A DNA stretch of 64,000 nucleotides from Actinophytocola algeriensis (GTDB lineage Bacteria > Actinomycetota > Actinomycetes > Mycobacteriales > Pseudonocardiaceae). The stretch covers positions 1 through 64,000 of the forward strand of contig NZ_JACHJQ010000012.1 of assembly GCF_014203735.1 (NCBI RefSeq), read 5' to 3'. A program made the position numbers and the translations under genes. This document shows, piece after piece, positions 40,069 to 64,000 of the stretch (its first letter is position 1; each line of letters starts with the position of its first letter). The notes under the pieces were generated by a model. The model saw nothing but the letters and a program-made list of their open reading frames with translations. It was not told the DNA's origin and made no database searches.

Positions 40069-40100
40069 AAGTGCCTCGAAAAGTGCCTGTTCAAGCGCCC
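40069..40100. repeat. Three 12-bp-phased direct repeats (AAGYGCCY)
   Basis: AAGTGCCT at 40069, AAGTGCCT at 40081 and AAGCGCCC at 40093 recur at exact 12-base spacing, about one helical turn. Direct repeats phased this way are the kind of site bound by SARP-like or OmpR-like activators (SARPs usually use 11-base steps). They lie about 200 bases before the first biosynthetic gene. Confidence 0.45.
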
Positions 40101-40179
40101 TGCGCCTCATGTATGCAGTGCGGCTCGACGCGTTTGGCGTGATCGCGCCATTACGTAGAGCATCGTTCATGTTTTGTCT

Positions 40180-40194
40180 TTTCAGCGCCTGAAA
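40180..40194. promoter_or_regulatory. Perfect inverted repeat upstream of first cluster gene
   Basis: TTTCAG-CGC-CTGAAA, six-base arms with a three-base centre, lies 100-115 bases before the likely start of the first AMP ligase. It may be a repressor site. No matching regulator gene is present in the cluster part visible here. Confidence 0.4.
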
Positions 40195-40294
40195 TCTGAC
40201 GTACGCTCCACTTCGCCGCCAGGTCGGGGCTGGTGGTAACTCGATGAAGGGCCCCTTCGGGGTGTATTTGTGCTGCTCATTTTTTCCTTGGGAG

Positions 40295-41695
40295 GTGTCC
40301 GCAATTACGGCCAGCGAAGTGCTGCGGACTGGCTCGTCGGAATGGGTCGACGAGGTATTGCTGAACGGCCCAGACAATGGAGTCTGTCTACACCTGGACG
40401 GTGCGCCGATTGCGCGTGCCGCGCTACGCCGGCTGGTCGTCGGGAAGCAGGACGCGCTGGTCGCGGCCGGGCTGCGGGAAGGCGGTTGCGCCGCGCTGAA
40501 CCTGCCGCCGTCACTCGCCTACGTGGCCAACCTGCTCGCCGTCTGGCGGATCGGCGCCCAGGCCGTACTGCTGGACCACCGGCTGACGCGGTACGAAGTC
40601 GACTCGGCCGCCGACCGGCTCGGTGTGCAGGTGCTGGTCGGCATCGGCGGCTCGAAAGGCAGTCCGCTGGCCGTGTTCCACGACGTGGCCGAGACGATCA
40701 CCACCCGGGAGGGCAGGCCGGCGGCGACGCCGCACGCCGTCCTCCAGCTCAGTTCCGGTTCGACCGGACCGTCCAAGGGGATCGGCCGGACAGCGGCCGA
40801 CCTCGTCGCGGAAGTCGAGCGGTACACCCGGATCGACGGCGTGCCACTGCCCGGCGAACGGATCATCCTGCTGCCCTCGATGGTGCACGTCCTCGGGCTC
40901 GTCGGCGGACTCCTGTACGGGCTGCACGCGGGCGTCGAGCTCGTGCCGCCACGCAGGCTCACCGGCGACAGCATCCTCGACGCGGTCGGTTCTGGCGCCA
41001 CCCCGGCGACCGTGCTCGGGGTGCCGTTCCACATCGGACTCCTGAACTCGGTCGCCGATCCGCGCAGGCTGCCACAGCTCAAGCGGATGACCACCGGTGG
41101 TGAGCTGGTGCCCGCCACCGTCTCGGCGGCGTTCGACGAGAAGTACGGCGTGCCGCTCGGGAACATGTGGGGCATGACCGAGCTGGGGGTCATCGCGACC
41201 GACCTGTTCGGTGAGCACCGGCCCGCGGTGCGGCCCGCCCCGGGGATCGAGGTCCGGGAGAGCGGCGGCGAGCTGCTGATCCGCAGGCCGGAGTCGCCCT
41301 ACGTCGGGCTGTCCGATCCGGCCAGGTGGGCCGACGGCTGGTTGCACACCAAGGACGCCGGTGTCCTCGACCCGTCGACCGGTCTCGTGACCGTGCTCGG
41401 CAGGCTCGACTCGCAGGTGTCGGTCGGCGGGCTCAAGGTCGACCTGACCGAGGTCGAGCACACCCTCACCGAGCTGCCCGGCGTCGAGGCCGCGGTCGTC
41501 CTGTACGACAAGGAGATCACCGCCTTCGTCCAGCTGACCGGCGACCACGCGGAGCAGTCGGTGGCGGTGGCGCTCGCCGAACGGCTCGCGGGCTACAAGC
41601 GGCCGAGGACCACGCACTTCATGCGGGCGCTGCCGCGCACGACGACCGGCAAGCTCGTCCGGGACCGCGCCGTGCTCCGTGCGGCGGTCTCCTGA
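40295..41695 (+). CDS. Acyl/aryl-AMP ligase 1
   Basis: An ANL-superfamily adenylate-forming enzyme of about 466 aa. The phosphate loop reads LQLSSGSTGPSKGIGR, the middle motif NMWGMTELGVIATD, the hinge YVGLSDPARWADGWLHTKDAGVLD, and the C-terminal catalytic Lys is in TTGKLVRD. It activates a carboxylic acid, then loads it on CoA or an ACP; two ACP genes follow. The start is uncertain. An ATG at 40244 sits in a GAAGGG-C-CCCTTC hairpin. The GTG used here abuts the GGGAGG site. An ATT nine bases on (ITASEVL) is better spaced. It opens the cluster operon. Confidence 0.88.
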   Translation: MSAITASEVLRTGSSEWVDEVLLNGPDNGVCLHLDGAPIARAALRRLVVGKQDALVAAGLREGGCAALNLPPSLAYVANLLAVWRIGAQAVLLDHRLTRYEVDSAADRLGVQVLVGIGGSKGSPLAVFHDVAETITTREGRPAATPHAVLQLSSGSTGPSKGIGRTAADLVAEVERYTRIDGVPLPGERIILLPSMVHVLGLVGGLLYGLHAGVELVPPRRLTGDSILDAVGSGATPATVLGVPFHIGLLNSVADPRRLPQLKRMTTGGELVPATVSAAFDEKYGVPLGNMWGMTELGVIATDLFGEHRPAVRPAPGIEVRESGGELLIRRPESPYVGLSDPARWADGWLHTKDAGVLDPSTGLVTVLGRLDSQVSVGGLKVDLTEVEHTLTELPGVEAAVVLYDKEITAFVQLTGDHAEQSVAVALAERLAGYKRPRTTHFMRALPRTTTGKLVRDRAVLRAAVS

Positions 41696-41753
41696 CAACC
41701 CCTGACCGGCAACGGTTTCGACCGAGACGTGACAACACACTGGAAGGTGAGCG

Positions 41754-42020
41754 ATGACGGCTGCAGAGGTTCGCGAGTTCGTGCTGGAGTCCCTCCAGGA
41801 GATGAACTACGACATCGAGGGCATCGACGACGACAGCACGCTGGGGCCCGCGGGCGTGGACCTCGAGTCACTCGCGATGGCGGAGCTGGCCGTGCGCGTC
41901 GAGGACCGGTTCGGCGTCCAGTTCGCGGAGGAGGAGTCCGAGGGGCTGGCGCTGATGACCGTCGGCGAGTTCACCAGGACGGTGGCCGACCGGGCCGCGA
42001 GCGTCGCGAGCGCCGGCTGA
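41754..42020 (+). CDS. Acyl carrier protein 1
   Basis: An 88-aa free-standing carrier. The phosphopantetheine Ser is in GVDLESLAMAEL (Ser about residue 39). The acidic helix II and overall size are typical of type II ACPs. It sits between an AMP ligase and a second ACP, so it probably receives an acyl group from one of the two ligases. A GGTGAG-type ribosome site precedes ATG. Confidence 0.92.
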   Translation: MTAAEVREFVLESLQEMNYDIEGIDDDSTLGPAGVDLESLAMAELAVRVEDRFGVQFAEEESEGLALMTVGEFTRTVADRAASVASAG

Positions 42021-42077
42021 CCGAATGGACCGAACCCGGCGTCGCGCAGCGGCGCCACCCGACCCTGCGAGGACTGC

Positions 42078-42320
42078 GTGAACGACAAGACCGCCGTGGA
42101 GCGTGCCGACGTCGTGGCCATGATCGCGAGCCTGGGTGACCGCACGGTCGCCGAGATCGGCGACCAGATCGACTCGATGCAACTCGCGTGGGTCGTGAAC
42201 CAGGCAGAGCAGCGCTACGGCGTGGAGATCGACCTGACCGACGGGCAGTACGCCCGGATGGGCACAGTGGACGGTGCGGTCGAGGTGCTGCGTGAGGCGA
42301 TCGCGGCGGTCCCCAGATGA
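42078..42320 (+). CDS. Acyl carrier protein 2
   Basis: An 80-aa ACP-like protein with the attachment segment DQIDSMQLAWVV (Ser about residue 33). The motif is D-S-M where DSL is usual. It is more divergent than the preceding ACP. Its stop overlaps the ATG of the following ketosynthase (ATGA), so carrier and KS are made together and probably work together. Confidence 0.88.
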   Translation: MNDKTAVERADVVAMIASLGDRTVAEIGDQIDSMQLAWVVNQAEQRYGVEIDLTDGQYARMGTVDGAVEVLREAIAAVPR

Positions 42321-43402
42321 CCGCACCTCGCGTCGCGATCACCGGCCTGGCCGCCGTCAGCGCACTCGGCAGGGGAGTGCAGGCACAACTCGCGGGTGCC
42401 CTGGCGGGTACCGCGGCGTTCGGGCCGGTGCGCCGGTTCGACGCCGGCGGGCGCCGGGTCACCGACGCGGCGACGCTCACGGACGCGGGCACCCTGGCGG
42501 ACGAACTCGCCGGGGCCGTCGCGGCGGCCTGCCACGGCCTGAGTGCGGCCGAACGCGCGACGACCCCGTTGCTGCTGGGAATCCACGGCCACCCCGACGG
42601 CGGCCGCGACACCACGGCCACCACCGCGGGATTCGCGCGGGCGCTGGCCACCCGGGCCGGGCTCGCCGGGGTGGCGAGGATCTACACGTGTGCGTGCGTG
42701 TCCGGCAGCACCGCCGTCGCGGACGCGGCAGCGGAGATCCACAAAGGACGGTCGGGCCGGGTCGTGGTGGCCGCGGGCTACCTCGTGGAGCCCGACCAGT
42801 TCGCCCTCTTCGACGCGGGGCGGGCGCTCGCGCGCGACGGTGCCGCGCGGCCGTTCAGCTCCGGCCGGAACGGACTGTTGCTGGGTGACGCCGTCTCCGC
42901 GGTGGTGCTCGAACCCGCCGGTGCGCGGGAGGTGCTGGCCGAGGTGACCGGCTGGGGCCGGGCCGGGGACGCGCACCACGTCGTCCGCCCCGACCCGGCG
43001 GGTGCCGGCATGGCACGGGCGATCGAGGCGGCCCTGCGCCGCGGCGGGCTCGGACCGGACGAGGTCGGGTACGTCAACGCGAACGCGAGCGGCGCGGACG
43101 GGGACAGCGCGGAAGCCGCCGCCCTGCGCCGGGCCTTCGGCGCGGCACGACCACCGGTCAGCTCGACGAAATCCGTGCACGGCCACGGACTCGAGGGGTC
43201 CGGGCTGCTCGAGCTGGTGATCACCGTGCTCGCCGCGCAGGCGGGCAAACTGCCGGTGAACGCGGGTCACCTCGCGCCAGACCCGGCGTGCGACCTGGAC
43301 CTGGTCCTCGACGGACCGAGGAAGGCAGCGAGCCCCCACGCGTTGACGGTCAACGCCGCCTTCGGCGGTGCCAACACGGCGTTGCTGGTGAGGGCGGCAT
43401 GA
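42317..43402 (+). CDS. Ketosynthase-like protein with altered His
   Basis: A 361-aa KAS I/II-fold protein. The nucleophile is kept (Cys127 in YTCACVSGST) and so is the second His (H290 in SVHGHGLEGSG). The first catalytic His, normally in NAHGT, is Asn (N256 in YVNANASGADGD). At 361 aa it is about 50 residues shorter than FabF-type enzymes. Loss of this His usually weakens decarboxylative condensation, so it may act as an acyltransferase, a chain-length partner, or use an unusual substrate. It is coupled to ACP2 upstream and the KS-like fragment downstream. Confidence 0.88.
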   Translation: MTAPRVAITGLAAVSALGRGVQAQLAGALAGTAAFGPVRRFDAGGRRVTDAATLTDAGTLADELAGAVAAACHGLSAAERATTPLLLGIHGHPDGGRDTTATTAGFARALATRAGLAGVARIYTCACVSGSTAVADAAAEIHKGRSGRVVVAAGYLVEPDQFALFDAGRALARDGAARPFSSGRNGLLLGDAVSAVVLEPAGAREVLAEVTGWGRAGDAHHVVRPDPAGAGMARAIEAALRRGGLGPDEVGYVNANASGADGDSAEAAALRRAFGAARPPVSSTKSVHGHGLEGSGLLELVITVLAAQAGKLPVNAGHLAPDPACDLDLVLDGPRKAASPHALTVNAAFGGANTALLVRAA

Positions 43403-43896
43403 CCCCGACCGAGCTGGCCACCGCGACGCTGCCGGAAGGGACGGTCCCGCCGCCGCTGCCGGGGTTCGTGGTGTCCTCGTTCAGCCCGCTCGCCGCCGCC
43501 GCCGCGGACCGGTGTCTCACCGCCCGCCACGGGAACCCGCCTGCCGCCGGCGAGGTGGGGCGGCGAACCGCGGTCGTCCTCCTCAGCGGGAGCGGCGACG
43601 CGCCGATGGCCGCACACGTCGCCGACGCCGTCGACACCGGCACCCGGATCGGCCCGCTGCTGTTCTTCCAGGCCGTCCCCAACAGCGTCGCGGGGCACGT
43701 CGCCGCGCGCTGGGGCCTGCGCGGGCCCGTGGTCTGCCTGTGCCCGGTGGCCGGCGCGGCGACCGAAGGGCAGGCGTACGCACGACTGCTGATCGAGGAC
43801 GGCGACGCGGACGAGGTCCTCGTCGTCACGGTGGCACGAACGGCCGCACACGCCGTGCTGATCGGCCACAGACAAGCGCTGGGTGAAGGAGAGTGA
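43399..43896 (+). CDS. Free-standing N-terminal KS-like protein lacking the nucleophile
   Basis: A 165-aa protein corresponding to the N-terminal half of a ketosynthase (Ketoacyl-synt_2-like). Anchoring on IEDGDADEVLVV, the Cys position falls on Ala (CLCPVAGAATEGQAYARLL). Such small KS-like proteins accompany KS enzymes in aryl polyene and related type II clusters. There they may act as a partner subunit. Both ends overlap or abut neighbours (ATGA with the KS before it; the AMP ligase ATG lies two bases past its stop). Confidence 0.8.
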   Translation: MTPTELATATLPEGTVPPPLPGFVVSSFSPLAAAAADRCLTARHGNPPAAGEVGRRTAVVLLSGSGDAPMAAHVADAVDTGTRIGPLLFFQAVPNSVAGHVAARWGLRGPVVCLCPVAGAATEGQAYARLLIEDGDADEVLVVTVARTAAHAVLIGHRQALGEGE

Positions 43897-43898
43897 CG

Positions 43899-45506
43899 AT
43901 GAACGCGAAGGGCCTGCGTGCCGTCCTGGCCGCCGATCCGGAGATCGGTGCGGGCAACGTGCTGCGCACCGTCCTCGCCCACGGCGCGGACCCGGACGGG
44001 CCAGGGCTGATCTTCGACACCGAGGTCGACGGCCGTCCCGCAGAACACGAGTTCACACTCGGCGAGCTGGACACCATGGTCGACGCGCGCGCCGCGTGGC
44101 TCCACGCCCGCGGGATCCGCGGGTGCGACCCCGTCGCGGTGTGGGCGACCGCCGCGGCCGACACCGTCCTGAGCTTCCTCGCGCTCACCCGCATCGGCGC
44201 GATCCCCGCGCTGATGAACGGGAAGATGACCCCCGACATCGCCGCCGAGTTCATCCGCAGGCTGCGCGCCAGGGGAGTGCTCGCCGACGCGGCGCACACG
44301 GAACTGCTGGCCGGCCACGACCTCGGCACCGAGCTGCTCGGGCGGCCCGACGAACTGGGTGAAGGCGACCCCTCCGCCGCACCGCGGCACTACCGCCACC
44401 ACCAGGACGACCCGGTCGTCATCACGCACACGTCCGGTACCACCGGCGTGCCCAAGGCCGTGTTGCACCTGCACCGCACGCTGTTCGCCTCCCAGCGGCA
44501 CCTGCTGTCGATGCCGCAGGCACAGGGCACCGGCCGGGTGCTCAACGCGCTGCCGATCCCGCACACCGCGACCGTGCTGATGGTCACCCAGATCCTGTGC
44601 AACCGGGGGAAGATGCTCTGCCTGTCCCACCAGGACGGTCCGACCGTGCTGGCGGCCATCGAGCGGTGGCACCCCGAGTCGGTGTACGGCTTCGCGGTGA
44701 CGTGGGCGGACCTCGCGCGCCACGATCTGTCCACACGGGACGTCGGCTCGGTGCGGATGTGGTTCAACACCGGCGACTGCGCGCACGAGACCCACATCCG
44801 GCGACTGGTCGCGGTCGGCTCGCGGGAGGTCGTCACCCGCGAGGGCCGCCGCCGGATCACCGGGTCGCACTTCATCGACGGCCTCGGCTCGTCGGAGATG
44901 GGGCACAACGGGTTCCACGTCACGCACACGCCCGGCAGCGACCACTACGGCCGCCGGATCGGCAGGCCCTACAAGTTCGCCGAGGTCGCCGTGCTCGACG
45001 CCGACGGGAACGAACTGCCCCCCGGCCGGGTCGGCAGGCTCGGGTTCCGGTCGCCCACCCTCTCGCCCGGCTACTGGAACGACTCGGTCACCACGTTCCG
45101 GTCGCGGCTGGCCGGCTGGTACCTCACCGGTGACCTCGTCCACCGGGACGCCGATGGCAACTACTACCACGTGGACCGCGACCCGGACGCGCTCGTCGGC
45201 GACGGCTTCTACACGGCGTTGTCCGAGGAGCGGATCCTCGCCGCCTGCCAGGACGTGCTCGACTGCACCGTCGTGATCGTGCCCGAGAACGGGCAGGTCG
45301 TCACCGACGTGCTGCTGGAGCTCGCGCCCGGCGCCGAGGCGGGCACCGACCGCACCGAGATCATCCGCGCCGCGCTCGGCGAGCCGGTCGGCGCGACGCT
45401 CCACCGCGTCGTCGTCGTGCGGCAGGAGGACATCCCGCTGACCGTGACCGGCAAGGTGCGCAAGTTCCTGCTGCGCGAGCGGCACCTCGCCAAGGACCCG
45501 GCATGA
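43899..45506 (+). CDS. Acyl/aryl-AMP ligase 2
   Basis: A 535-aa ANL enzyme. The ATG is chosen over a GTG six bases upstream because AAGGAG is 7 bases from it. The phosphate loop is THTSGTTGVPKAVLHLHR, the middle motif HFIDGLGSSEMGHNGFH, the A7-like segment GWYLTGDLVHRDADGNYYHVDRDPD, and the catalytic Lys is in TVTGKVRKF. It is closer to fatty-acyl or aryl-CoA ligases than the first ligase. Its substrate could be an aromatic acid from the HmaS route or a fatty acid. The stop overlaps the ATG of the FabF-type KS. Confidence 0.9.
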   Translation: MNAKGLRAVLAADPEIGAGNVLRTVLAHGADPDGPGLIFDTEVDGRPAEHEFTLGELDTMVDARAAWLHARGIRGCDPVAVWATAAADTVLSFLALTRIGAIPALMNGKMTPDIAAEFIRRLRARGVLADAAHTELLAGHDLGTELLGRPDELGEGDPSAAPRHYRHHQDDPVVITHTSGTTGVPKAVLHLHRTLFASQRHLLSMPQAQGTGRVLNALPIPHTATVLMVTQILCNRGKMLCLSHQDGPTVLAAIERWHPESVYGFAVTWADLARHDLSTRDVGSVRMWFNTGDCAHETHIRRLVAVGSREVVTREGRRRITGSHFIDGLGSSEMGHNGFHVTHTPGSDHYGRRIGRPYKFAEVAVLDADGNELPPGRVGRLGFRSPTLSPGYWNDSVTTFRSRLAGWYLTGDLVHRDADGNYYHVDRDPDALVGDGFYTALSEERILAACQDVLDCTVVIVPENGQVVTDVLLELAPGAEAGTDRTEIIRAALGEPVGATLHRVVVVRQEDIPLTVTGKVRKFLLRERHLAKDPA

Positions 45507-46765
45507 CCACGCCGACGACGTCGGCCGCGATCACCGGCATCGGCCTGCTGACCCCGGTCGGCCGGGGCGTGGAGGAGGTCTTCCACGCGCTGTGCGTCGG
45601 CAAGTCCGGGCTGTCCGCGCCGCCGGCCGGTCACCCGGCCGCGGACTCGGTGGACGTCGGCGGTTTCGTGCCGGACGTCGACCCGCGCACCGTGGTGTCC
45701 GGTCCCGCGGCCTCGGTCGTGGACAAGGTCGTGGTGCTGGCATTGATCACCGCCGCGGACGCGCTCGCCGACGCGGGCATCGAGGTCGGCCGCGACGTCG
45801 ACCCGGACCGGATCGGGGTGGTGGTCGGCGGGGTCGGCGGCATGGCCACCCTCGAGCGGCAGGTGCTGGCGCGCGGCGACCGGGGTCGCACCGCGGTGAG
45901 CCCGTACCTGCTCACCGGGATCCTGCCGAACATGCCCGCCGCCCGGATCGCGATCACCCACGGGATCCGGGGCTACAGTTCGAGCATCGGCACCGCGTGC
46001 GCGTCCGGCGCGCAGGCGATCGCCGACGGGCTGCGGCTGATCCGCTCCGGCGACGCCGACGTGGTGGTGTGCGGGGCGAGCGAGGCGCCGCTGTTCGCGA
46101 CCTTCGCCGACACGTTCGGCAACGCGCGGGCACTCGCCAGGCACTGGCCGGACCCGACCGCCGCGAGCCGCCCGTTCGACACCAGGCGCAACGGGTTCGT
46201 GCTCGCCGAGGGCGCCGGGATGCTCGTGCTGGAGCGCGTCGGACACGCCAACGCCCGAGGCGCCGCCGCGTACGCGGACGTGCGGGGCTGGGGTGCCACC
46301 ACGGACGCGCACCACCCGACCACGCCCCGGCCCGACGGGGCGGGCGCGGCCGAGTGCATGCGCAGAGCCCTTGCCGGCGCGGGCCTCGCGCCCGCCGACA
46401 TCGGTTACGTCAACGCGCACGGCACCGCGACCAAGCTCGGGGACGTCGCGGAAACCGCCGCACTCGCAGCGGTTTTCGGCGAGGACGGCCCGCCGGTCAG
46501 CTCCACCAAGGCGCTGACCGGTCACATGCTCGGCACCTCCGGGGTGGTCGAGGCGGCGGCCGGCGCGCTCGCCGTCGCCCGCGGGGTGCTGCCACCCACC
46601 TTCAACCTCGACGAGGTGGATCCGGCGTGCCCGGGTGCCCACATCCGGGCCACGCCCATGGAGACGGAGATCGACCACGCGCTGACGAACTCGTTCGGGT
46701 TCGGCGGCCAGAACGTGAGTCTCGTGTTGAGCTGCGCGAGCACAGACAAGAAGCGAAACGGTTAG
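45503..46765 (+). CDS. Beta-ketoacyl-ACP synthase (FabF-type), intact triad
   Basis: A 420-aa KAS II-type enzyme with all catalytic residues: Cys166 in SIGTACASGAQ, His in YVNAHGTATKLGD, Lys and His in SSTKALTGHMLGTSG. This is the only fully competent KS of the visible set and probably does the decarboxylative elongations, using the two ACPs. It is coupled by ATGA to the second AMP ligase and followed 32 bases later by hydroxymandelate synthase. No ketoreductase or dehydratase is visible in the window. Confidence 0.93.
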   Translation: MTTPTTSAAITGIGLLTPVGRGVEEVFHALCVGKSGLSAPPAGHPAADSVDVGGFVPDVDPRTVVSGPAASVVDKVVVLALITAADALADAGIEVGRDVDPDRIGVVVGGVGGMATLERQVLARGDRGRTAVSPYLLTGILPNMPAARIAITHGIRGYSSSIGTACASGAQAIADGLRLIRSGDADVVVCGASEAPLFATFADTFGNARALARHWPDPTAASRPFDTRRNGFVLAEGAGMLVLERVGHANARGAAAYADVRGWGATTDAHHPTTPRPDGAGAAECMRRALAGAGLAPADIGYVNAHGTATKLGDVAETAALAAVFGEDGPPVSSTKALTGHMLGTSGVVEAAAGALAVARGVLPPTFNLDEVDPACPGAHIRATPMETEIDHALTNSFGFGGQNVSLVLSCASTDKKRNG

Positions 46766-46797
46766 GGCACACGAGTGAAGCCTGCGGAGCGAGAATC

Positions 46798-47862: not shown

Positions 47863-47872
47863 GGAGGCACAA

Positions 47873-48796: not shown

Positions 48797-48808
48797 AGGA
48801 GCACGATC

Positions 48809-50640: not shown

Positions 50641-50674
50641 GATCCCTGCCAGTCCTGCGGAAGGAGGTGCGGCG

Positions 50675-53247: not shown

Positions 53248-53250
53248 GCC

Positions 53251-54165: not shown

Positions 54166-54227
54166 GCTCGTCGCTGCTAGGCAGCATCTCGTGTCGACTG
54201 GTCCGACCCGGTTGGTGGCCGGACCCG

Positions 54228-54259
54228 CGTGCGGGGACGGATGTCGCCGTCCCCGCACG
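54228..54259. terminator. Strong 13-bp hairpin splitting the cluster
   Basis: CGTGCGGGGACGG and its exact complement CCGTCCCCGCACG enclose a six-base loop, lying 63 bases past the thiolase-like gene and before the exporter gene. It is followed by GTCTT but no long T-run. It may end the first transcript or attenuate read-through into the second half of the cluster. Confidence 0.7.
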
Positions 54260-54298
54260 GTCTTACCCGATTCTACGCCGAGAGGAGTGCCGGACCCG

Positions 54299-56942: not shown

Positions 56943-56987
56943 GTGTCCTGGTCGGACAGCACGTGCAAGGGAAGGAGGTGGGTGCGC

Positions 56988-57122
56988 ATGCGTGTCGAGG
57001 ACAAGCCGTTCGCGGGCACGGCAGCGCTCGCGCCTGCGATCGAGGAGGTGGCCGTGCGGGCCGCGATCGAAGCCGGCGCCTCCACCGCCGTCGGCGGCGC
57101 CCCGATGGCGGCCCTCCGATGA
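56988..57122 (+). CDS. 44-aa peptide, unknown
   Basis: An ATG preceded by a near-perfect AAGGAGG site at 9 bases opens a 44-codon frame (MRVEDKPFAG start, MAALR end) rich in Ala, Gly, Val. The C-terminal half is GASTAVGGAPMAALR. Its stop codon overlaps the start of the E1 alpha gene (ATGA), so it is translated and coupled. I recognise no family. It could be a leader for coupling, a small subunit of the E1 complex, or a precursor peptide; none is supported beyond position. Confidence 0.6.
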   Translation: MRVEDKPFAGTAALAPAIEEVAVRAAIEAGASTAVGGAPMAALR

Positions 57123-58102
57123 CGGCATCCACAGTGGACATCGCGGTCTCGTTGTACCGGACCGTGCGGCTGATCCGCCGGTTCGAGGAGCGGGCGCTCG
57201 AGCTGGTGCGGTCCGGCGACATCGTCGGCGGCATCCACCCCTGCATCGGGCAGGAGGCGGTGCCCGCCGGGGTGTGCGCCGCGCTCGGCCAGGACGACCT
57301 CGTCACCGGCACCCACCGCGGGCACGGGCACGTGCTCGCGAAGGGTGCGGACCCGGCCCGCATGATGGCCGAGCTGACCGGCCGCGTCACCGGGCTCAAC
57401 AAGGGCCGCGGCGGCTCCATGCACGCGGCGGACTTCGGCGTCGGGGTCCTCGGCGCCAACGCGATCGTGGGTGCCGCCGGTGCCATCGCGACCGGGGCCG
57501 CGTGGGCGCGGCAGCGGCTCGGGACCCCCGTGGTCGCGGCGACCTTCTTCGGTGACGGCGCGGTCAACGAGGGCATGCTCCTCGAAACGTTCAACCTGGC
57601 GGCGCTGTGGCGGGTGCCGGTGGTGTTCGTCTGCGAGAACAACGGCTGGGCGACCACCATGCGCGTCGACGACGCGGTCGCGGGCAGCATCACCGGGCGG
57701 GCCGAGGCGTTCGGCATCCCAGCGTCCACAGTGGACGGTCAGGACGCGGCGGCGGTGCTCGCGGCCACCCGGGAGGCCGTGGCGCGGGCCCGCGCGGGTG
57801 GCGGGCCGTCGTTCCTCGAGTGCCGAACCCAGCGGTTCGAGGCCCACCACACGTTCGAGCACGCGGTGCGGCTGCGCTACCGCACCGACGAGGAACTCGC
57901 GCTGATCCGTGCCCGCGACCCGCTCGACATCCAGGGTGCGCGCCTCGACGCCGCCGTGCGGGCGGACGTGGACTCCGAGATCGAGGACGTGCTCGGCCAC
58001 GCCGTCGAGTTCGCGCTGGCGAGTGAGTTCCCCGACCCCCTCACCGCACTGGACCACCTGTACGCGAGCGGGCTGCGCCCGCGACCCGGGAGCGGTGTCT
58101 GA
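57119..58102 (+). CDS. 2-oxo acid dehydrogenase E1 component, alpha subunit
   Basis: A 327-aa thiamine diphosphate enzyme subunit. The cofactor motif is GDG (145-147) followed about 27 residues later by NN (174-175): FFGDGAVNEGMLLETFNLAALWRVPVVFVCENNGW. The N-terminal RTVRLIRRFEERALELVRSG is typical of PDH/acetoin E1 alpha. It forms a heterotetramer with the beta subunit coded next (ATGA). No E2 or E3 gene follows, as in PDH-like pairs recruited to natural-product starter supply, for example the pristinamycin PglB/PglC pair. Confidence 0.93.
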   Translation: MTASTVDIAVSLYRTVRLIRRFEERALELVRSGDIVGGIHPCIGQEAVPAGVCAALGQDDLVTGTHRGHGHVLAKGADPARMMAELTGRVTGLNKGRGGSMHAADFGVGVLGANAIVGAAGAIATGAAWARQRLGTPVVAATFFGDGAVNEGMLLETFNLAALWRVPVVFVCENNGWATTMRVDDAVAGSITGRAEAFGIPASTVDGQDAAAVLAATREAVARARAGGGPSFLECRTQRFEAHHTFEHAVRLRYRTDEELALIRARDPLDIQGARLDAAVRADVDSEIEDVLGHAVEFALASEFPDPLTALDHLYASGLRPRPGSGV

Positions 58103-59076
58103 TGCCGAAGCTGTCCTACCAGAAGGCGCTCAACCGGGCGCTCGCCGACGCGATGACGGCTGACGAGACGGTGTTCGTGCTCGGCGAGGACGTCCGGGTC
58201 GCCGCGTCGAACGTGACCGCGGGCCTGCACAAGCGGTTCGGGGACGACCGCGTCCTCGACACCCCGCTGTCCGAACAGGGCTTCACGAGCTTCGCCACCG
58301 GCGCGGCGATCGCGGGCATGCGCCCGGTCATCGAGTTCCAGATCCCCGCGCTGCTGTTCCTGTCGTTCGAGCAGATCACCAACCACGCCCACAAGTTCTC
58401 GCTCATGACCGGCGGGCAGTGCACCGTGCCCGTCACCTACGTGGTGCCGGGTTCCGGCTCGCGCACCGGTTGGGCGGGCCAGCACTCCGACCACCCCTAC
58501 AGCCTGTTCGCGCACGTCGGCGTCAAGACCGTCGTGCCGGCCACCCCCGCCGACGCCTACGGGTTGTTGCGGTCGGCGATCGCCGACCCCGACCCGGTGG
58601 TGGTGTTCGCGCCGTCGGCCGCGCTCGGCGTCCGCGAGGACCTCGACTTCGGGACGCTCGCGCCGGTGTCGCTCGGGTCGGGCCGGATCCACCGCCACGG
58701 CACGGATGTCACCGTGGTGGCGGTTGGGCACCACGTGCACGACGCCGTCGCGGTGGCCGACGACCTCGCGGACAGCGTGTCGGTCGAGGTGTTCGACCCC
58801 AGGACGCTCTACCCCTTCGACTGGGACGGGCTCACCGAGTCGGTGTCGCGGACCGGGCGGCTCGTGGTGATCGACGACTCGAACCGGATGTGCGGGCTCG
58901 CGGGCGAGGTGATCGCGACGATCTCCGAGCGGGTGCGGCTCGCGGCCCCGCCCGCCCGGGTCACCCGCCCGGACGGTGCGGTGCTGCCGTTCTCACTCGA
59001 GCTGGACCGGTCGGTGCAGCCGAGCAGGGCGCAGCTCGCGGACGCCGTCGCCATCGCGGTCAAGGAACGGCCATGA
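58102..59076 (+). CDS. 2-oxo acid dehydrogenase E1 component, beta subunit
   Basis: A 324-aa transketolase-like beta subunit, with the segments FVLGEDVRVA, LDTPLSEQGFTSFATGAAIAGMRPVIEFQ, and C-terminal LVVIDDSNRMCGLAGEV. It partners the alpha subunit (ATGA overlap). Together they decarboxylate a 2-oxo acid and pass the acyl or hydroxyalkyl group to an acceptor. Given HmaS and Hmo, 4-hydroxybenzoylformate is a plausible substrate, though pyruvate or a branched 2-oxo acid cannot be excluded. Confidence 0.93.
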   Translation: MPKLSYQKALNRALADAMTADETVFVLGEDVRVAASNVTAGLHKRFGDDRVLDTPLSEQGFTSFATGAAIAGMRPVIEFQIPALLFLSFEQITNHAHKFSLMTGGQCTVPVTYVVPGSGSRTGWAGQHSDHPYSLFAHVGVKTVVPATPADAYGLLRSAIADPDPVVVFAPSAALGVREDLDFGTLAPVSLGSGRIHRHGTDVTVVAVGHHVHDAVAVADDLADSVSVEVFDPRTLYPFDWDGLTESVSRTGRLVVIDDSNRMCGLAGEVIATISERVRLAAPPARVTRPDGAVLPFSLELDRSVQPSRAQLADAVAIAVKERP

Positions 59077-59087
59077 CGGGAACGCGG

Positions 59088-59801
59088 TCACTGCCGCCCT
59101 GCGGACGCCGTGCGGTCCGGGTTCTCGGCCAGGTGGGTGCCCAGCACCCGCACGGTCTCCGCGAGCGCGATCGCGTCGCCGCGCCCGTTGACGTGCCTGC
59201 CGTCGGCCGCGAACAGGCCGGGATCGGTCGCGGCCGGGTGTCCGGTGAGGTTCACGTGCAGCGTGCCGAGCTCCTCTGCGATCGCCGACGTGCGCGCGGA
59301 CAGTTCCCGCATCCGCTTCCGCAGACCCGGGCGCAGCCAGTCGGGGATCCTGGGGGAGGGGGAGTAGGAGACGTTGAACAGCCCCAGCGTGAGCACGTCC
59401 GCGCCCGCCGCCCGCAGCGCGGTGATCATGGTCCGCAGCTCGGCGTCCACCGCGTCGGGCTTGTACGTCGCCGGGAACGCGTCGTTGGCGCCGCACACCA
59501 GGAGCGCGAGGTCAGGTTCGAAGTCCAGCGCGGGACCGAGCTGACCGGCGCGGACCTCCCGCGCACGCAGCCCCCGGTGCCCGAGGTTGAGGTAGTCGAG
59601 GCCCGGTGCGGTGGCGGCCAGCTCGCGCGCGACGCGGTCGGCGAACTGCACCTCGCTGTAGCCGGGCAGGGGCTCGGCGAGCCCCTCCGCGACGCTGTCG
59701 CCGAGGACGGCGAACCGCCGCCACGGGTGCCCGGCGAGCAGGCGGGCGCTGTCCCCCGCGCGCAGGCAGTGGGGATCTTCCGACTCGGTCAAGGAGTGCA
59801 T
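59088..59801 (-). CDS. SGNH/GDSL hydrolase (cytoplasmic)
   Basis: A 237-aa hydrolase with block I FAVLGDSVAEGL, block II NLGHRGLRAREV, block III VCGANDAF and block V DGRHVNGRG, so Ser, Gly, Asn, and His are all present. No signal peptide. It is the only minus-strand gene in the cluster region and starts next to the following plus gene (adjacent start codons at 59801/59802). It could deacylate a small molecule or carrier. The link to the pathway is unproven. Confidence 0.9.
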   Translation of the reverse strand: MHSLTESEDPHCLRAGDSARLLAGHPWRRFAVLGDSVAEGLAEPLPGYSEVQFADRVARELAATAPGLDYLNLGHRGLRAREVRAGQLGPALDFEPDLALLVCGANDAFPATYKPDAVDAELRTMITALRAAGADVLTLGLFNVSYSPSPRIPDWLRPGLRKRMRELSARTSAIAEELGTLHVNLTGHPAATDPGLFAADGRHVNGRGDAIALAETVRVLGTHLAENPDRTASAGRQ

Positions 59802-60404
59802 GTGTCAATCGCCCTGGATCTGCGGGACCTGCGGGAGGCGAACCGCCGCGTGCTCGCGACGACCACGGAGATCGTCGCACAGGTGCGGGCCGACCAGCTC
59901 GACCTGCCGACGCCGTGCGACGGCTGGTCGGTGCGCGACCTGTTGCGGCACATGGTGGGCAACAACAACGGCTTCGCGGGCGCGGCACTGGGCCGGCCGC
60001 CGGACGCCGCCGTCTGGGACGGGGTGGACGTCACCGACCCGGCCGGTGAGTTCCCGGCGTCCGCGGAGCGGGTGGTCGCGGCGTTCGCCTCCGTCGAACC
60101 GCTGACCGGCACGTTCGCGGTGCTGGGCTACGGGGACGTGCCCGCTGCCCAGGCCGTCGGCATGTACTTCATCGACTACCTGGCCCACGGCTGGGACGTC
60201 GCCGTGTCGATCGGGGTGGACCCCGGCCTCGACCAGGACGCCTGCGCGGCCGTGCTGCGGATCGGTGCCGCGTGGCCGAGGGACTCGCCCGCGATCTGGG
60301 GGCCGGGTGCCCCGTTCGGCCGCCGGGTCGACGTGCCGGGGGACGCGTCGGTGGCCGACCGGATGCTCGGCTTCCTCGGCCGGTTCCCGGTGTGGCCGGG
60401 ATGA
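59802..60404 (+). CDS. TIGR03086-type metal-binding protein (maleylpyruvate isomerase/DinB fold)
   Basis: A 200-aa protein from a GTG with AAGGAG five bases upstream. A four-helix DinB-like core shows metal ligands in DLLRHMVGNNN and DYLAHGWDVA (H-x-x-D). Members of this actinobacterial group include mycothiol-dependent isomerases and transferases. Its start codon abuts that of the divergent SGNH gene, so the two promoters lie within each other's coding regions. Role in the cluster unknown. Confidence 0.85.
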   Translation: MSIALDLRDLREANRRVLATTTEIVAQVRADQLDLPTPCDGWSVRDLLRHMVGNNNGFAGAALGRPPDAAVWDGVDVTDPAGEFPASAERVVAAFASVEPLTGTFAVLGYGDVPAAQAVGMYFIDYLAHGWDVAVSIGVDPGLDQDACAAVLRIGAAWPRDSPAIWGPGAPFGRRVDVPGDASVADRMLGFLGRFPVWPG

Positions 60405-60777: not shown

Positions 60778-60835
60778 CGGACCCACTGCCCCCTGCTGCC
60801 ACCGGCATGCCACATTTAGTTGGAGGATCCACCGA

Positions 60836-62161
60836 ATGAACATTTCGAGGAAATGGCGGTCGCGGTCGCTGATCGCCTCCGGGCTGGCGGCGGCGGTCAC
60901 GGCGACCGTGCTCGTCGCGGGCGCCGGCACGGGTGCGGCGGCAGGTGGGGGGCGGCACGACGCGCAGCGGGACTGGGTCGGCAGCTGGGCGGCGGGCGTC
61001 ACCCGGGGCAACCTCACCGGCACGTCGTCGGTGGGGTTCAACAACCAGAGCGTCCGGATGATCGTGCACGGCTCGGTCGGTGGCTCGAAGGTCCGCGTCC
61101 GGCTCTCCAATGTCTACGGGGAGAAGTCGGTCGAGGTCGGGCACGCCACCGTCGCGAAGCCGGACACCGCCACCCCCGCGCTGACCGACGTCGACCCGGC
61201 CTCGGTCACGCGGCTGACCTTCGGCGGTTCGCCGTCGTTCGTCATGCCGAAGGGCGCCGAACTGCTCAGCGACCCGGTCGACCTGCGGGTGGGCGACGAC
61301 CAGGACCTGGTGGTGAGCGTCTACTTCCCCACGCCGACCGGGCTGACCACGTTCCACTCGACGTCCCGGCAGAACAGCTGGTCCGGCAACGGTGACCTCG
61401 CGGACGACGCCGCGGGCACCGGCTACACCGTCACGCGCACCTGCTGCTGGTTCTTCCTGGCCGGCGTCGACGTGCTCCGCGACAAGGCGGCCGGCTCGGT
61501 GATCGTGTTCGGCGACTCGCTCGGCGACGGCAACGGCATCGCGGTCAACAGCAACCTGCGCTGGCCCGACCAGCTCTTCGACCGGATGCAGAGCAAGGTG
61601 CGCCACAAGGCGCTGCCCGGCGTGCTGAACGTCAGCCGTGCGGGCGCACGGCTGAGCCACGAGGGTCTCGAACCCGGCGACGGCGGCTTCGCGGGCTTCC
61701 CCGAGCTCGGCGACAACGCGTACTCCCGGCTCGACGAGGACGTGTTCTCCGAGACCGCCGCGCACGCGGTCATCCTGGACCTCGGCATCAACGACATCTG
61801 GATGAACAACGACTCGGCCGCGTCGATCATCGCGGCGATCCGCCAGCTCAACCAGCAGATCAAGCAGCGCGGGTACACGGTGCTCGTCGGCACCCTCGGA
61901 CCGTTCGAGGGCCTGATGGGCGTCAACGGCACGACCGTGTGGTCGCCGGAGAAGGAGGCGACCCGCCAGGCGGTCAACGACTACCTGCGCACACACCGCG
62001 ACGAGTTCGACGCGGTCGTGGACTTCGACAAGGTGCTCCGCGACCCGGGTGCCCCGAGCAAGCTGGCGCCCGCGTTCGACTCCGGCGACCACATCCACCC
62101 GAACGGCGCGGGCAACAAGGCGATGGCCGAGGCCGTCCCGCTGCACAAGATCGTTCGCTGA
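60836..62161 (+). CDS. Secreted SGNH hydrolase
   Basis: A 441-aa protein with a signal peptide (KWRSRSLIASGLAAAVTATVLVAGAGTGAAA, cleavage near residue 40) and an SGNH domain: block I VIVFGDSLGDGNG, block II NVSRAGARL, block III DLGINDIW, block V SGDHIHPNGAGN. Acts outside the cell as an esterase or carbohydrate deacylase. It is preceded by its own promoter and followed by a 14-bp hairpin, so it is a separate transcription unit inside the cluster region and may be unrelated. Confidence 0.92.
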   Translation: MNISRKWRSRSLIASGLAAAVTATVLVAGAGTGAAAGGGRHDAQRDWVGSWAAGVTRGNLTGTSSVGFNNQSVRMIVHGSVGGSKVRVRLSNVYGEKSVEVGHATVAKPDTATPALTDVDPASVTRLTFGGSPSFVMPKGAELLSDPVDLRVGDDQDLVVSVYFPTPTGLTTFHSTSRQNSWSGNGDLADDAAGTGYTVTRTCCWFFLAGVDVLRDKAAGSVIVFGDSLGDGNGIAVNSNLRWPDQLFDRMQSKVRHKALPGVLNVSRAGARLSHEGLEPGDGGFAGFPELGDNAYSRLDEDVFSETAAHAVILDLGINDIWMNNDSAASIIAAIRQLNQQIKQRGYTVLVGTLGPFEGLMGVNGTTVWSPEKEATRQAVNDYLRTHRDEFDAVVDFDKVLRDPGAPSKLAPAFDSGDHIHPNGAGNKAMAEAVPLHKIVR

Positions 62162-62164
62162 CGG

Positions 62165-62201
62165 GGTGGTCCCGGTGGCCGACCGCGCCACCGGGACCAC
62201 C
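62165..62201. terminator. Strong 14-bp hairpin after the SGNH gene
   Basis: GGTGGTCCCGGTGG pairs exactly with CCACCGGGACCACC around a nine-base loop, starting four bases after the stop codon. The position and stability fit a terminator, though no U-run follows. Confidence 0.85.
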
Positions 62202-62343
62202 GCCGTGTTCTCGGATGACCCCCTGGCAGCCGCACCTCAGGGGAACGTGACGCAAGCCAGCCACAAGTACGTGACCGAACAGAACTCGCCGTCCCCAGCG
62301 CGACCAGAACGTTGAGTTCCGGGGAGGCGGAACAGGGGCCCCG

Positions 62344-63300
62344 ATGCCGCTTGACCCGCAGTTCGCCGCCATGCGTGCGGAACGCATGGCGCGTGGGGCG
62401 ACACCGTTGTACGAGATGACGCTCGCGCAGGCGCGTGCCGCCGACCTCGCGGACATCCGCGCGGCGGGCGGGGACGCCGAGCCCGTGTTCGAGGTGACCG
62501 ACGGGACGTTCCCCGGCAGGCGGGGCGTGCTGCCGGTACGCGTCTACCGCCCGTCCGCCGACCGTCCACTCGGGACATTGGTGTACTTCTTCGGCGGTGG
62601 CTGGACACTGGGCGGCATCGACACGTCCGACGGCGTCTGCCGGGCACTCGCGAACGCCGCCGGGTGCCTGGTCGTCACCCCGGGCTACCGGCTGGCGCCC
62701 GAGCACCCGTTCCCCGCTGCCGTGGACGACTGCCTCGCCGCGGTCGAGTGGGTGGCCAGGAACGCGGAGGCGCTGGGCGCCGACCCCGACCGGATCGCGG
62801 TCGGTGGCGACAGCGCGGGCGGGAACCTGGCGGCCGTGGTGGCCCAGGAGGGCAAGGATGTCGGCCCCCGACTCGCCGCGCAGGTGCTCGTGTACCCGAA
62901 CACCTGCTACCGCTCCGGCACCGACTCGTTGCGCGACAACGACGACAGGTGGCTGTTCAACCACCACTCCGTCGACTGGTACTGGCGCAACTACCTCCCC
63001 GACCCCGGCGCGGGCCGCGACCCCCGGGTGTCACCGCTGCTCGCCCCGGACCTGTCGAGGCTGCCACCCGCGCTCGTGATCACCGCCGAGTACGACCCGC
63101 TGCGCGACGAGGGCGAGCGCTACGCCGAGCGGATGCGGGCGGCCGGGGTGCCGGTGGAACTGACCCGTTACGACGGGATGGCGCACGGGTTCTTCACCAT
63201 GTCCGGGGTGCTGCCCGACGCCCGCCGTGCCGTCGCCCAAGCCGCGGAGTACCTGCGGAAGATGCCGGCCCTCCAGGGGACGCGGGCCGATGACGCGTGA
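62344..63300 (+). CDS. HSL-type alpha/beta hydrolase
   Basis: A 318-aa esterase of the hormone-sensitive lipase group. The oxyanion motif HGGG reads FGGG (VYFFGGGWTLGG), the nucleophile is in GDSAGG, Asp is in YDPLRDEGERYA, and His in MAHGFF. It overlaps by 11 bases the start of the hydroxymandelate oxidase, so the two are co-transcribed. It could remove an ester or carrier bond in the pathway. Confidence 0.9.
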   Translation: MPLDPQFAAMRAERMARGATPLYEMTLAQARAADLADIRAAGGDAEPVFEVTDGTFPGRRGVLPVRVYRPSADRPLGTLVYFFGGGWTLGGIDTSDGVCRALANAAGCLVVTPGYRLAPEHPFPAAVDDCLAAVEWVARNAEALGADPDRIAVGGDSAGGNLAAVVAQEGKDVGPRLAAQVLVYPNTCYRSGTDSLRDNDDRWLFNHHSVDWYWRNYLPDPGAGRDPRVSPLLAPDLSRLPPALVITAEYDPLRDEGERYAERMRAAGVPVELTRYDGMAHGFFTMSGVLPDARRAVAQAAEYLRKMPALQGTRADDA

Positions 63301-64000
63301 CGACCCGCTGACCGTCGCCGACGTCGCCCGGCTCGCGCAGGCGCGGCTGCCGAAGGAGCTGTGGGACTACGTCGCGGGCGGCAGCGGCGCGGAGACGACC
63401 CTCGCGGCCAACCGGGCCGCGCTCGACGAGGTGGCGGTGCTGCCCAGGGTGCTGGCGGGCGTGGCCGCGCCGGACCCCGGGACCCGGCTGCTCGGCTCCG
63501 CGTCCTCGCTGCCGCTCGCCGTGGCGCCGATGGCCTACCAGCGACTCCTGCACCCCGACGGCGAGCTCGCCACCGCCGAGGCCGCCGAGGCGGCCGGCGT
63601 GCCGTTCGTGGTGAGCACCCTGGCCAGCGTGACGGTGGAGGAGGTCGTGAAGACCGGCGCCACCACCTGGTTCCAGCTCTACTGGCTGCGCGCGCCAGGT
63701 GTCGTCGAGGACCTCGTGGCGCGGGCCGAGGACGCGGGTTGCGAGGCGCTGGTCGTGACCGTCGACGTACCGGTCATGGGGCGGCGGCTGCGCGACGTGC
63801 GCAACTCGTTCGTGCTGCCGGACGACGTGGTCGCCGCACACCTCACCGGCGGCGGCGACGGCACTGCGAGCCGCGCGCACGCCCGGGAAGCCGGGACATC
63901 GGCGATCGCCGCGCACACCGCGGCCGCGTTCGCCCCCGGACTCGGGTGGTCGGACCTCGAGTGGTTGCGCGACCGGACGTCACTCCCGCTGGTGCTGAAG
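63290..64000 (+). CDS. hmo: 4-hydroxymandelate oxidase, N-terminal part (cut by window end)
   Basis: The first 237 codons of an FMN-dependent 2-hydroxyacid oxidase, open to the window edge. The match to the vancomycin-type Hmo as I recall it includes ELWDYVAGGSGAETTLAANRAAL, LAVAPMAYQRLLHPDGELA, TWFQLYWLR, and AGCEALVVTVDVPVMGRRLRDVRNSF. It oxidises 4-hydroxymandelate to 4-hydroxybenzoylformate. ATG overlaps the upstream hydrolase. This is the second step after HmaS and supports an aryl-glyoxylate supply in the cluster. Confidence 0.9.
   Translation, partial: MTRDDPLTVADVARLAQARLPKELWDYVAGGSGAETTLAANRAALDEVAVLPRVLAGVAAPDPGTRLLGSASSLPLAVAPMAYQRLLHPDGELATAEAAEAAGVPFVVSTLASVTVEEVVKTGATTWFQLYWLRAPGVVEDLVARAEDAGCEALVVTVDVPVMGRRLRDVRNSFVLPDDVVAAHLTGGGDGTASRAHAREAGTSAIAAHTAAAFAPGLGWSDLEWLRDRTSLPLVLK

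What the first reader, a model, noticed from the sequence alone, without database searches (positions are those of the whole stretch)
40069..64000. Unrecognised biosynthetic cluster mixing hydroxymandelate, PDH-like and type II KS enzymes
Nineteen same-strand genes combine HmaS, two AMP ligases, ACPs, altered and intact KS, KASIII-ACP, C-domain, E1 pair and several oxygenases; Hmo follows. HmaS plus Hmo normally feed HpgT for hydroxyphenylglycine, but no HpgT-like gene and no multidomain NRPS or PKS is seen. I know no described pathway with this gene set. The right boundary is outside the window.
Basis: partly seen in the sequence, partly recalled or inferred. Interest (0 to 1): 0.85.

Follow-up and report, generated by a model that had tools for sequence, protein, structure and literature searches.

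The report
Hydroxyphenylglycine gene cluster with diazo enzyme
This is a real gene cluster, shared by many soil bacteria, that appears to make the amino acid 4-hydroxyphenylglycine and carries a relative of a diazo-forming enzyme, so it may lead to an unknown family of nitrogen-nitrogen-bonded natural products.

Summary
The cluster is real: 18 same-strand genes run 40244-59076, and it continues past the window to about 71.6 kb. (1) Hydroxyphenylglycine (Hpg) supply is complete: HmaS, Hmo and, 393 bp beyond the window, an aminotransferase 56-67% identical to four that lie near HmaS in NRPS or glycopeptide-like loci. No NRPS/PKS megasynthase was seen. (2) The second 'AMP ligase' is a relative of nitrite-dependent N-N ligases (diazotase CmaA6, Tri17). 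AL1-ACP-ACP-KSa-KSb-AL2 repeats the cma/ava A1-A6 order, but aminohydroxybenzoate synthases and the denitrification enzyme are absent. Of 32 below-cut-off AL2-type ligases in 249 sampled family genomes, 22 lie within 25 kb of HmaS; of 16 over the cut-off, none. Seven of 37 related loci carry nitrous-acid genes in the cluster; this genome shows no intact aspartate N-hydroxylase. Best reading: an Hpg-based dissociated pathway with nitrite-dependent N-N chemistry. Product, step order and nitrite source are unknown. No matching description turned up in ten open-library searches.

The parts
40244..41695 (+). AL1: AMP ligase, CmaA1/AvaA1-like (acyl-ACP ligase by homology); exact start uncertain
   Evidence: Pfam AMP-binding and C-terminal domain; 40-41% to the same-position ligase in four cma/ava-type loci
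41754..42020 (+). ACP1, carrier protein with DLESL motif
   Evidence: Pfam PP-binding; motif conserved in relatives
42078..42320 (+). ACP2, second carrier protein (DSM motif)
   Evidence: no Pfam hit, weak NCBIfam ACP hit (1.7e-4), Ser motif conserved
42317..43402 (+). KSa: ketosynthase with Cys kept, first His replaced by Asn
   Evidence: Pfam; motif alignment; 43-45% to KS of cma/ava-type loci
43399..43896 (+). KSb: half-size KS/CLF-like partner
   Evidence: NCBIfam AmcG 37.3 bits, cut-off 80; 34-43% to the same-position gene of cma/ava-type loci
43899..45506 (+). AL2: ATP-dependent N-N ligase / diazotase relative
   Evidence: NF058622 493 bits, cut-off 975; CmaA6 8ztz 411 bits, Tri17 315 bits (titles); tree
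45503..46765 (+). KS2: intact FabF-type ketosynthase (Cys-His-His)
46798..47862 (+). HmaS, 4-hydroxymandelate synthase
   Evidence: 2r5v best solved relative; tree
47873..48796 (+). PhyH-family Fe(II)/2-oxoglutarate oxygenase
   Evidence: Pfam; in 19 of 20 related clusters
48809..49606 (+). DUF3050 / haem-oxygenase-like putative diiron oxygenase
   Evidence: Pfam DUF3050 and Haem_oxygenas_2; in 7 of 20 related clusters
49615..50640 (+). O-methyltransferase, SAM motif DVGGGSG kept
   Evidence: Pfam; motif; PDB ranking; in 4 of 20 related clusters
50675..51982 (+). Cytochrome P450
   Evidence: Pfam; in 4 of 20 related clusters
51979..53247 (+). KAS3-ACP: KASIII-like enzyme fused to an ACP; Cys and PHNVN His present, usual Asn position is His
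   Evidence: Pfam; alignments
53251..54165 (+). X304: divergent KASIII-fold protein, no Pfam hit
   Evidence: AlphaFold2 pLDDT 86; Foldseek KASIII matches incl. PqsBC; relatives at 37 loci
54299..55543 (+). MFS transporter
   Evidence: Pfam; in 1 of 20 related clusters
55533..56942 (+). Stand-alone condensation domain (LHTSVDA: second His and Asp kept)
   Evidence: Pfam; alignment
57119..58102 (+). E1 alpha, ThDP-dependent 2-oxoacid dehydrogenase subunit
   Evidence: Pfam; GDG...NN stretch conserved
58102..59076 (+). E1 beta
   Evidence: Pfam
59088..59801 (-). GDSL esterase, breaks the same-strand run; matched only in the two Actinophytocola loci L012 and L013
   Evidence: Pfam
59802..60404 (+). 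MDMPI_N (mycothiol-dependent isomerase-like) protein
   Evidence: Pfam
60836..62161 (+). GDSL esterase 2
   Evidence: Pfam
62344..63300 (+). Hormone-sensitive-lipase family hydrolase, conserved in relatives
   Evidence: NCBIfam; in 15 of 20 related clusters
63290..64000 (+). Hmo, FMN-dependent 4-hydroxymandelate oxidase candidate; runs on to 64393 outside the window
   Evidence: Pfam FMN_dh. Beyond the window, same contig numbering: HpgT-type aminotransferase 64393-65814 (+), KAS3b 66309-67244 (-), 4HBT thioesterase 67274-67705 (+), MFS 67729-68904 (-), AMP ligase 69018-70571 (-), second X304 70812-71633 (+)

Best explanation
The finding is one conserved biosynthetic cluster (40244 to about 71633 on contig C12). 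It makes 4-hydroxyphenylglycine (HmaS, then Hmo, then the HpgT-type aminotransferase), loads this aryl amino acid or a precursor on a discrete carrier protein (AL1 with ACP1/ACP2), extends or transfers it with dissociated KS enzymes (KS2 intact; KSa/KSb altered), and uses AL2, a CmaA6/Tri17-type ligase, to join nitrite to an amino group and form a diazo or other N-N function. A second arm, E1 alpha/beta with KAS3-ACP, X304 and the C-domain, supplies and transfers another acyl group; KAS3 and X304 probably work as an unequal KASIII pair, as PqsC and PqsB do (PqsBC roles recalled). PhyH, DUF3050, OMT and P450 decorate the product and MFS pumps export it. Shown: gene content, conservation, Hpg gene set by homology and context, clade of AL2, X304 fold (predicted). 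Inferred: substrates, order of steps, nitrite as co-substrate, E1 role, pairing of KAS3 with X304, product.
For: Hpg genes: HmaS; 48 of 66 HmaS-type hits of at least 276 bits have a relative of the aminotransferase within 12 kb, including loci with NRPS modules (L100, L101, L102) and a glycopeptide-like locus (L099). AL2: CmaA6 411 bits, Tri17 315, 9xb8 (named FadD) 264, the other six listed at E<=1e-20 97 or less; 26 window-type AL2 form one group (support 85) within a group of 35 N-N-type ligases (support 100 against 7 others); at E<=1e-120 the diazotase model rings in 40 of 249 family genomes and 0 of 14 control genomes. Same gene order as cma/ava A1-A6. Aspartate N-hydroxylase and nitrosuccinate-lyase relatives together in 7 of 37 related loci (families tested on L016 only: 8cp2, 603 bits; NF052556 567 bits, cut-off 650). 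AL2-HmaS linkage 22 of 32 versus 0 of 16. X304 fold; KAS3 just upstream of X304 in 36 of 37 loci.
Against: AL2 is far below the AvaA6 cut-off (493 of 975 bits), so its substrate and even its reaction may differ. In this genome the only aspartate N-hydroxylase match is about 160 residues long and the one lyase match lies on another contig and also passes the pcaB cut-off, so nitrite supply is unexplained. Only 4 of 20 related clusters read have the N-hydroxylase relative and 2 the lyase relative in the stretch. KSa has lost a catalytic His, and KSa/KSb were not found in 4 of 20 related clusters, so the KS pair is not essential to the core. E1 has no E2 or E3 in the cluster. The 20 clusters were found with X304, KSb or AL2, so their counts are conditioned. 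The AL2 model was poor (pLDDT 60.8).
Confidence: 0.58

Rival explanations
1. Diazotisation-dependent deamination: as in cma/ava, AL2 diazotises an amine that is then lost as N2, so the final product has no N-N bond.
For: AL2 and the gene order resemble cma/ava, where the diazo group is removed (PMC10777205, passages and section 5).
Against: No relative of the denitrification enzyme (A7; epimerase-family protein) on contig bases 1-120000 by tblastn, and none at E<=1e-5 among called proteins of window-type loci apart from one 28% hit in L023. A different enzyme could do the step.
Confidence: 0.17
2. AL2 is an ordinary aryl-acid ligase that has lost or never had nitrite chemistry; the cluster makes a plain Hpg-derived amide or aryl polyketide.
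For: AL2 is below the diazotase cut-off; nitrite genes are not in this cluster and this genome shows no intact aspartate N-hydroxylase.
Against: Closest solved relatives are CmaA6 and Tri17, ahead of ordinary aryl ligases; nitrite genes sit in 7 of 37 related loci; 72 of 134 ava-type clusters also lack them (PMC10777205, section 5).
Confidence: 0.17
3. KSa/KSb work like AmcF/AmcG (KS and cyclisation factor) and build a five-membered ring from 2-oxoglutarate and malonate, which is joined to Hpg.
For: KSa and KSb hit the AmcF and AmcG models (118.7 and 37.3 bits); the same-position gene of one cma/ava-type locus does not hit AmcG at 1e-5; 'minimal type' amcB/F/G/H clusters are reported (PMC10698177 section 9).
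Against: Both are below cut-off (325 and 80); KSa scores higher with FabF; the same-position KS of two cma/ava-type loci scores higher on AmcF (201 and 198 bits); gene order matches cma/ava.
Confidence: 0.06
4. Two unrelated neighbours: an Hpg supply cassette serving a distant NRPS, beside a separate KS/E1 cluster.
For: Hmo and the aminotransferase are separated from HmaS by 15-18 kb and by genes that are not conserved outside Actinophytocola.
Against: Hmo, aminotransferase and HSL travel with AL1, HmaS, PhyH, E1 and KAS3/X304 in several genera in different arrangements.
Confidence: 0.02

Closest known systems
cma (p-coumaric acid) and ava (avenalumic acid) clusters
   Same: Order acyl-ACP ligase, ACP, ACP, KS, CLF-like, diazotase; 40-45% identity for AL1, KSa and AL2 to same-position genes of four cma/ava-type loci
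   Different: No 3,4-AHBA synthases, no A7 denitrification enzyme, no in-cluster nitrite genes in this strain; Hpg supply, E1 pair, KAS3/X304 and C-domain added; KSa lost one His
Hpg supply cassettes (HmaS, Hmo, HpgT) of glycopeptide and NRPS clusters
   Same: All three enzymes present by homology and context
   Different: No NRPS found; genes spread over 19 kb
Tri17 (triacsin) N-N ligase
   Same: Same ligase group, 33-35% identity in the Foldseek alignment
   Different: Other triacsin genes were not searched for
Cispentacin KS-CYF (AmcF-AmcG)
   Same: Small partner beside a shortened KS
   Different: Below both curated cut-offs
PqsBC and other KASIII enzymes
   Same: X304 model matches KASIII folds including PqsBC
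   Different: 11-19% identity and large rmsd in the 50 rows shown; function untested
Pyruvate/2-oxoacid dehydrogenase E1
   Same: E1 alpha and beta homologous to PDH E1
   Different: No E2 or E3 in the cluster; 45% to the nearest other E1 alpha in this genome

Membership tests
Hpg biosynthesis (HmaS/Hmo/HpgT) | HmaS rather than HPPD | tested here: met
Hpg biosynthesis (HmaS/Hmo/HpgT) | FMN-dependent hydroxymandelate oxidase | tested here: met
   FMN_dh family; 54-64% to homologues in L099, L100 and L102; substrate untested
Hpg biosynthesis (HmaS/Hmo/HpgT) | HpgT-type aminotransferase | tested here: met
   by homology and context, not activity
Hpg-containing NRPS cluster | NRPS modules nearby | tested here: not met
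   none among the scanned genes of 40244-71633 nor the nine larger ORFs scanned outside
ava/cma diazotisation cluster | A1-A6 gene order | tested here: met
ava/cma diazotisation cluster | diazotase over NF058622 cut-off | tested here: not met
   493 of 975 bits
ava/cma diazotisation cluster | 3,4-AHBA synthases H and I | tested here: not met
   (query identity as DHQ synthase II and aldolase families)
ava/cma diazotisation cluster | A7 denitrification enzyme | tested here: not met
ava/cma diazotisation cluster | nitrite genes E and D in the cluster | tested here: not met
   not in this cluster; both present in 7 of 37 related loci. 72 of 134 published ava-type clusters lack them too
Nitrite-dependent N-N ligases (CmaA6, Tri17) | sequence group | tested here: met
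Nitrite-dependent N-N ligases (CmaA6, Tri17) | ATP- and nitrite-dependent activity | not testable with these tools
   needs enzyme assay
Cispentacin KS-CYF | AmcF and AmcG models over cut-off | tested here: not met
   118.7 of 325 and 37.3 of 80 bits
2-oxoacid dehydrogenase complex | E2 and E3 with E1 | tested here: not met
   no such domain among the scanned cluster genes
KASIII heterodimer (PqsBC-like) | KASIII fold of X304 | tested here: met
   (predicted model)
KASIII heterodimer (PqsBC-like) | KAS3 and X304 bind each other | not testable with these tools
   only closeness of the genes in 36 of 37 loci

The most novel reading that the evidence does not exclude
A new class of nitrogen-nitrogen natural products in which a carrier-bound 4-hydroxyphenylglycine unit, not an anilinic acid, is diazotised by AL2. 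Nitrite transfer to an amine next to a carbonyl would give an alpha-aryl-alpha-diazo thioester or ketone, kept as such or closed to a pyrazole or pyridazine by the KS-made chain, and then joined to an E1/KASIII-derived acyl unit. As far as I know it would be the first CmaA6/Tri17-type pathway built on an alpha-amino acid by a fully dissociated PKS/NRPS-like system.
Probability: 0.2. Interest if true: 0.88.

Novelty: new variant of a known kind. Interest (0 to 1): 0.68.

Why it matters
Known diazo natural products are few: one 2026 paper counts 469 predicted diazo clusters, of which 20 are linked to 11 products (PMC13061610, passages). The window type pairs a diazotase relative with a new building block, Hpg, and a new accessory set. 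Relatives were found in Actinophytocola, Actinokineospora, Kitasatospora, Phytohabitans, Micromonospora, Catellatospora and others, including DSM, NBRC and JCM strains, so the product can be looked for directly. It also poses clean enzyme questions: what a KS with Cys-Asn-His does, what an E1 pair without E2 hands its acyl group to, and whether N-N ligases accept alpha-amino acids.

Tried and rejected
Considered and set aside: HPPD instead of HmaS; C2-ketol transfer by E1 as in naphthyridinomycin, and PglB/PglC of phenylglycine pathways (recalled only, no sequence compared); AlpH-type SAM-independent coupling for the OMT (AlpH ranks fourth at 191 bits behind 6c5b, CalO6 and DtpM, and the SAM motif is kept); the cyclopentanone route (rival above).

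Led nowhere: a plasmid search with E1 alpha gave only matches under 60% identity (573 records); the AL2 structure model was too poor for active-site reading and served only to obtain PDB titles; ten paper searches found no description of this gene set. Of the papers I saw passages or single sections, none whole: PMC10698177 (passages, section 9), PMC10777205 (passages, section 5), PMC11705231, PMC13061610, PMC10404684, PMC10477347, the last four passages only.

Limits: my gene caller is a simple codon-score script; starts are approximate and it missed genes. A recount by tblastn replaced the first table, which had missed KSb in two clusters (16 of 20, not 14). Some genomes appear to occur under two handles (for example G001/G116 and G002/G154), so genome counts across overlap. 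Rows left out: KSa motif rows need 300 aa, AL2 tree rows 480 aa and 250 bits; the X304 alignment holds the window and 31 of 37 loci; KAS3 motif rows shown are 14 only. In the KSb search 22 of 23 asked genomes' loci could be searched (L015 not held); 18 of the 22 genomes have a match at E<=1e-28.

Full report
What is there. The window is bases 1-64000 of contig C12 (193,860 bases) of a 9.7 Mb genome. The closest named relative of X304 is in Actinophytocola xanthii (74%). Eighteen plus-strand genes run from 40244 to 59076 (labels). A minus-strand GDSL gene follows, then MDMPI, a second GDSL, an HSL-family hydrolase and Hmo, which the window edge cuts. Beyond the edge come an aminotransferase (64393-65814), a second KASIII-like gene, a 4HBT thioesterase, an MFS pump, a third AMP ligase and a second X304 (70812-71633). 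A. xanthii has the same order across loci L049, L012 and L050. Right of 71633 the only matches to the A. xanthii flank are weak ones of 28-31%, so I place the right border near 71.6 kb. On the left, genes between 36199 and 39781 have no match in the relatives read except a P450 at 33-35%, so the left border is near 40.2 kb.

Hpg supply. HmaS is closest to 2r5v among solved structures. In a search of 249 genomes of the family, 66 HmaS-type hits of at least 276 bits are listed; 48 have a relative of our aminotransferase within 12 kb and 10 within 2 kb. I read four such loci: L100, L101 and L102 carry NRPS modules beside the HmaS-aminotransferase pair; L099 has Hmo, HmaS, P450, a PIG-L deacetylase, a C-methyltransferase and a glycosyltransferase, which looks like a glycopeptide cluster (the glycopeptide label is my reading). 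The window aminotransferase is 56-67% identical to those four. NCBIfam has no named HpgT hit for it, so the name rests on homology and context.

The N-N ligase. AL2 scores 493 bits with the model of the 3-aminoavenalumate diazotase (cut-off 975); the next model scores 145. Its nearest solved relatives are CmaA6 (8ztz, 411 bits) and Tri17 (8tf7/9bq0, 315 bits); 9xb8, named FadD, scores 264 and the other six listed 97 or less (titles). In a tree of 42 ligases, 26 window-type AL2 form one group (support 85); with four cma/ava-type and five other N-N-type sequences they stand against seven other ligases (support 100; quick method, long branches in the outgroup). A search with the diazotase model at E<=1e-120 gave 48 places in 40 of 249 genomes and none in 14 control genomes. 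Sixteen places pass the curated cut-off; none of these has a listed HmaS within 25 kb. Of the 32 below it, 22 do, and 18 of these also have the aminotransferase. One more (G154) is split over contigs. So AL2-type genes divide into an aminohydroxybenzoate group and an Hpg group.

Gene order. Four loci with ligases over the cut-off (L086-L089) show the order printed for cma: I, H, A1, A2, A3, A4, A5, A6, (B, not called in L089), A7, E, D; in L086 the H, I and A7 genes are a DHQ synthase II, an aldolase and an epimerase-family protein. The window repeats A1-A6 as AL1, ACP1, ACP2, KSa, KSb, AL2, with 40-45% identity for AL1, KSa and AL2 and 34-43% for KSb. It lacks H, I, B and A7: tblastn over contig bases 1-120000 found none at 1e-3. 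B has relatives among called proteins of window-type loci only in the two compact loci L064 and L096. Those two also carry HmaS, PhyH and an aspartate N-hydroxylase relative but no E1 or KAS3/X304 in the stretch read.

Nitrite. Seven of 37 X304 loci, all Actinokineospora, hold both an aspartate N-hydroxylase relative and a nitrosuccinate-lyase relative (families tested on L016; 8cp2 as sole PDB match at 1e-10 with 603 bits; 8cp2 is the aspartate N-hydroxylase). The window genome (98% complete) does not: it has a match of about 160 C-terminal residues on C2 and, elsewhere on C2, one lyase with 576 bits (cut-off 650) that also passes the pcaB cut-off. Nitrite here must come from elsewhere, or the pathway is idle in this strain. 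Published ava-type clusters lack these genes in 72 of 134 cases.

Condensing enzymes. KSa keeps its Cys in all 17 window-type sequences read, but the two catalytic His positions read Asn-His in 11, His-Gln in 4 and His-His in 2; four cma/ava-type KS and the window KS2 are His-His. A KS with one His gone may transfer rather than condense. KAS3 keeps Cys and His, but the usual Asn position is His in the 14 sequences shown. X304 has no Pfam hit. A model from 32 sequences (pLDDT 86) matches KASIII structures with Foldseek E down to 2e-9, TM about 0.5 and 11-19% identity in the rows shown. Cys119, Asp120, Gln121 and His169 are invariant. KAS3 lies just upstream of X304 in 36 of 37 loci, usually with an ACP gene between them or, here, fused.

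How widespread. In 20 related clusters assembled from the loci, a tblastn recount finds AL1 and AL2 in 20; HmaS, PhyH and ACP1 in 19 (the HmaS missing from G137 lies just outside the stretch read); ACP2 in 18; KS2, KAS3 and X304 in 17; KSa and KSb in 16; E1 alpha, E1 beta, aminotransferase, HSL and C-domain in 15; Hmo in 12; DUF3050 in 7; OMT and P450 in 4; MFS in 1. Many stretches are incomplete, and all were found through X304, KSb or AL2, so these are not unbiased rates. Instead of the window's tailoring and MFS genes, many relatives have a glycosyltransferase (16), an ABC transporter (14) or a phosphopantetheinyl transferase (9), and some an amino acid-ACP ligase (4). L094, L095 and L098 have no KSa/KSb in the stretch read, which suggests that Hpg supply, AL1, the ACPs, AL2, PhyH and KAS3/X304 are the heart of the pathway.

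Conclusion. The best reading is a family of Hpg-based, dissociated pathways with a nitrite-dependent N-N ligase, sharing a cassette with cma/ava. It is not a member of ava/cma (several defining features tested and not met) and not an Hpg NRPS cluster. Product, order of steps, acceptor of the E1 acyl group and nitrite source are open.

Noticed in passing
L091, L092, L093, L097: Another conserved cluster with aminohydroxybenzoate-synthase relatives, an AL2-type ligase and an O-methyltransferase relative in all four, and an aspartate N-hydroxylase relative in three of the four stretches; it recalls cremeomycin-type clusters (recalled).
   Followed up: partly
L016 11460-12341 and relatives: Stand-alone amino acid-[ACP] ligase of the seryl-tRNA-synthetase type near X304 in Actinokineospora, Solihabitans and one Kitasatospora (L030), absent from the window cluster.
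   Followed up: no
L104 5731-6261: AAC(2')-type acetyltransferase gene (below curated cut-offs) directly upstream of the nitrosuccinate-lyase-like gene in the window's own genome.
   Followed up: no
L105 5479-5943: Open frame of 154 aa matching only the C-terminal part of the aspartate N-hydroxylase, perhaps a remnant.
   Followed up: partly
L103 4575-11227: Second, fragmentary window-type cluster in an Actinophytocola MAG with E1, P450, OMT, HmaS, ACPs and a short AL1 piece; no AL2 or KS gene called in the stretch.
   Followed up: no
window 26924-29917: Large BTAD/NB-ARC (SARP-type) regulator on the minus strand left of the cluster; link to the cluster untested.
   Followed up: no
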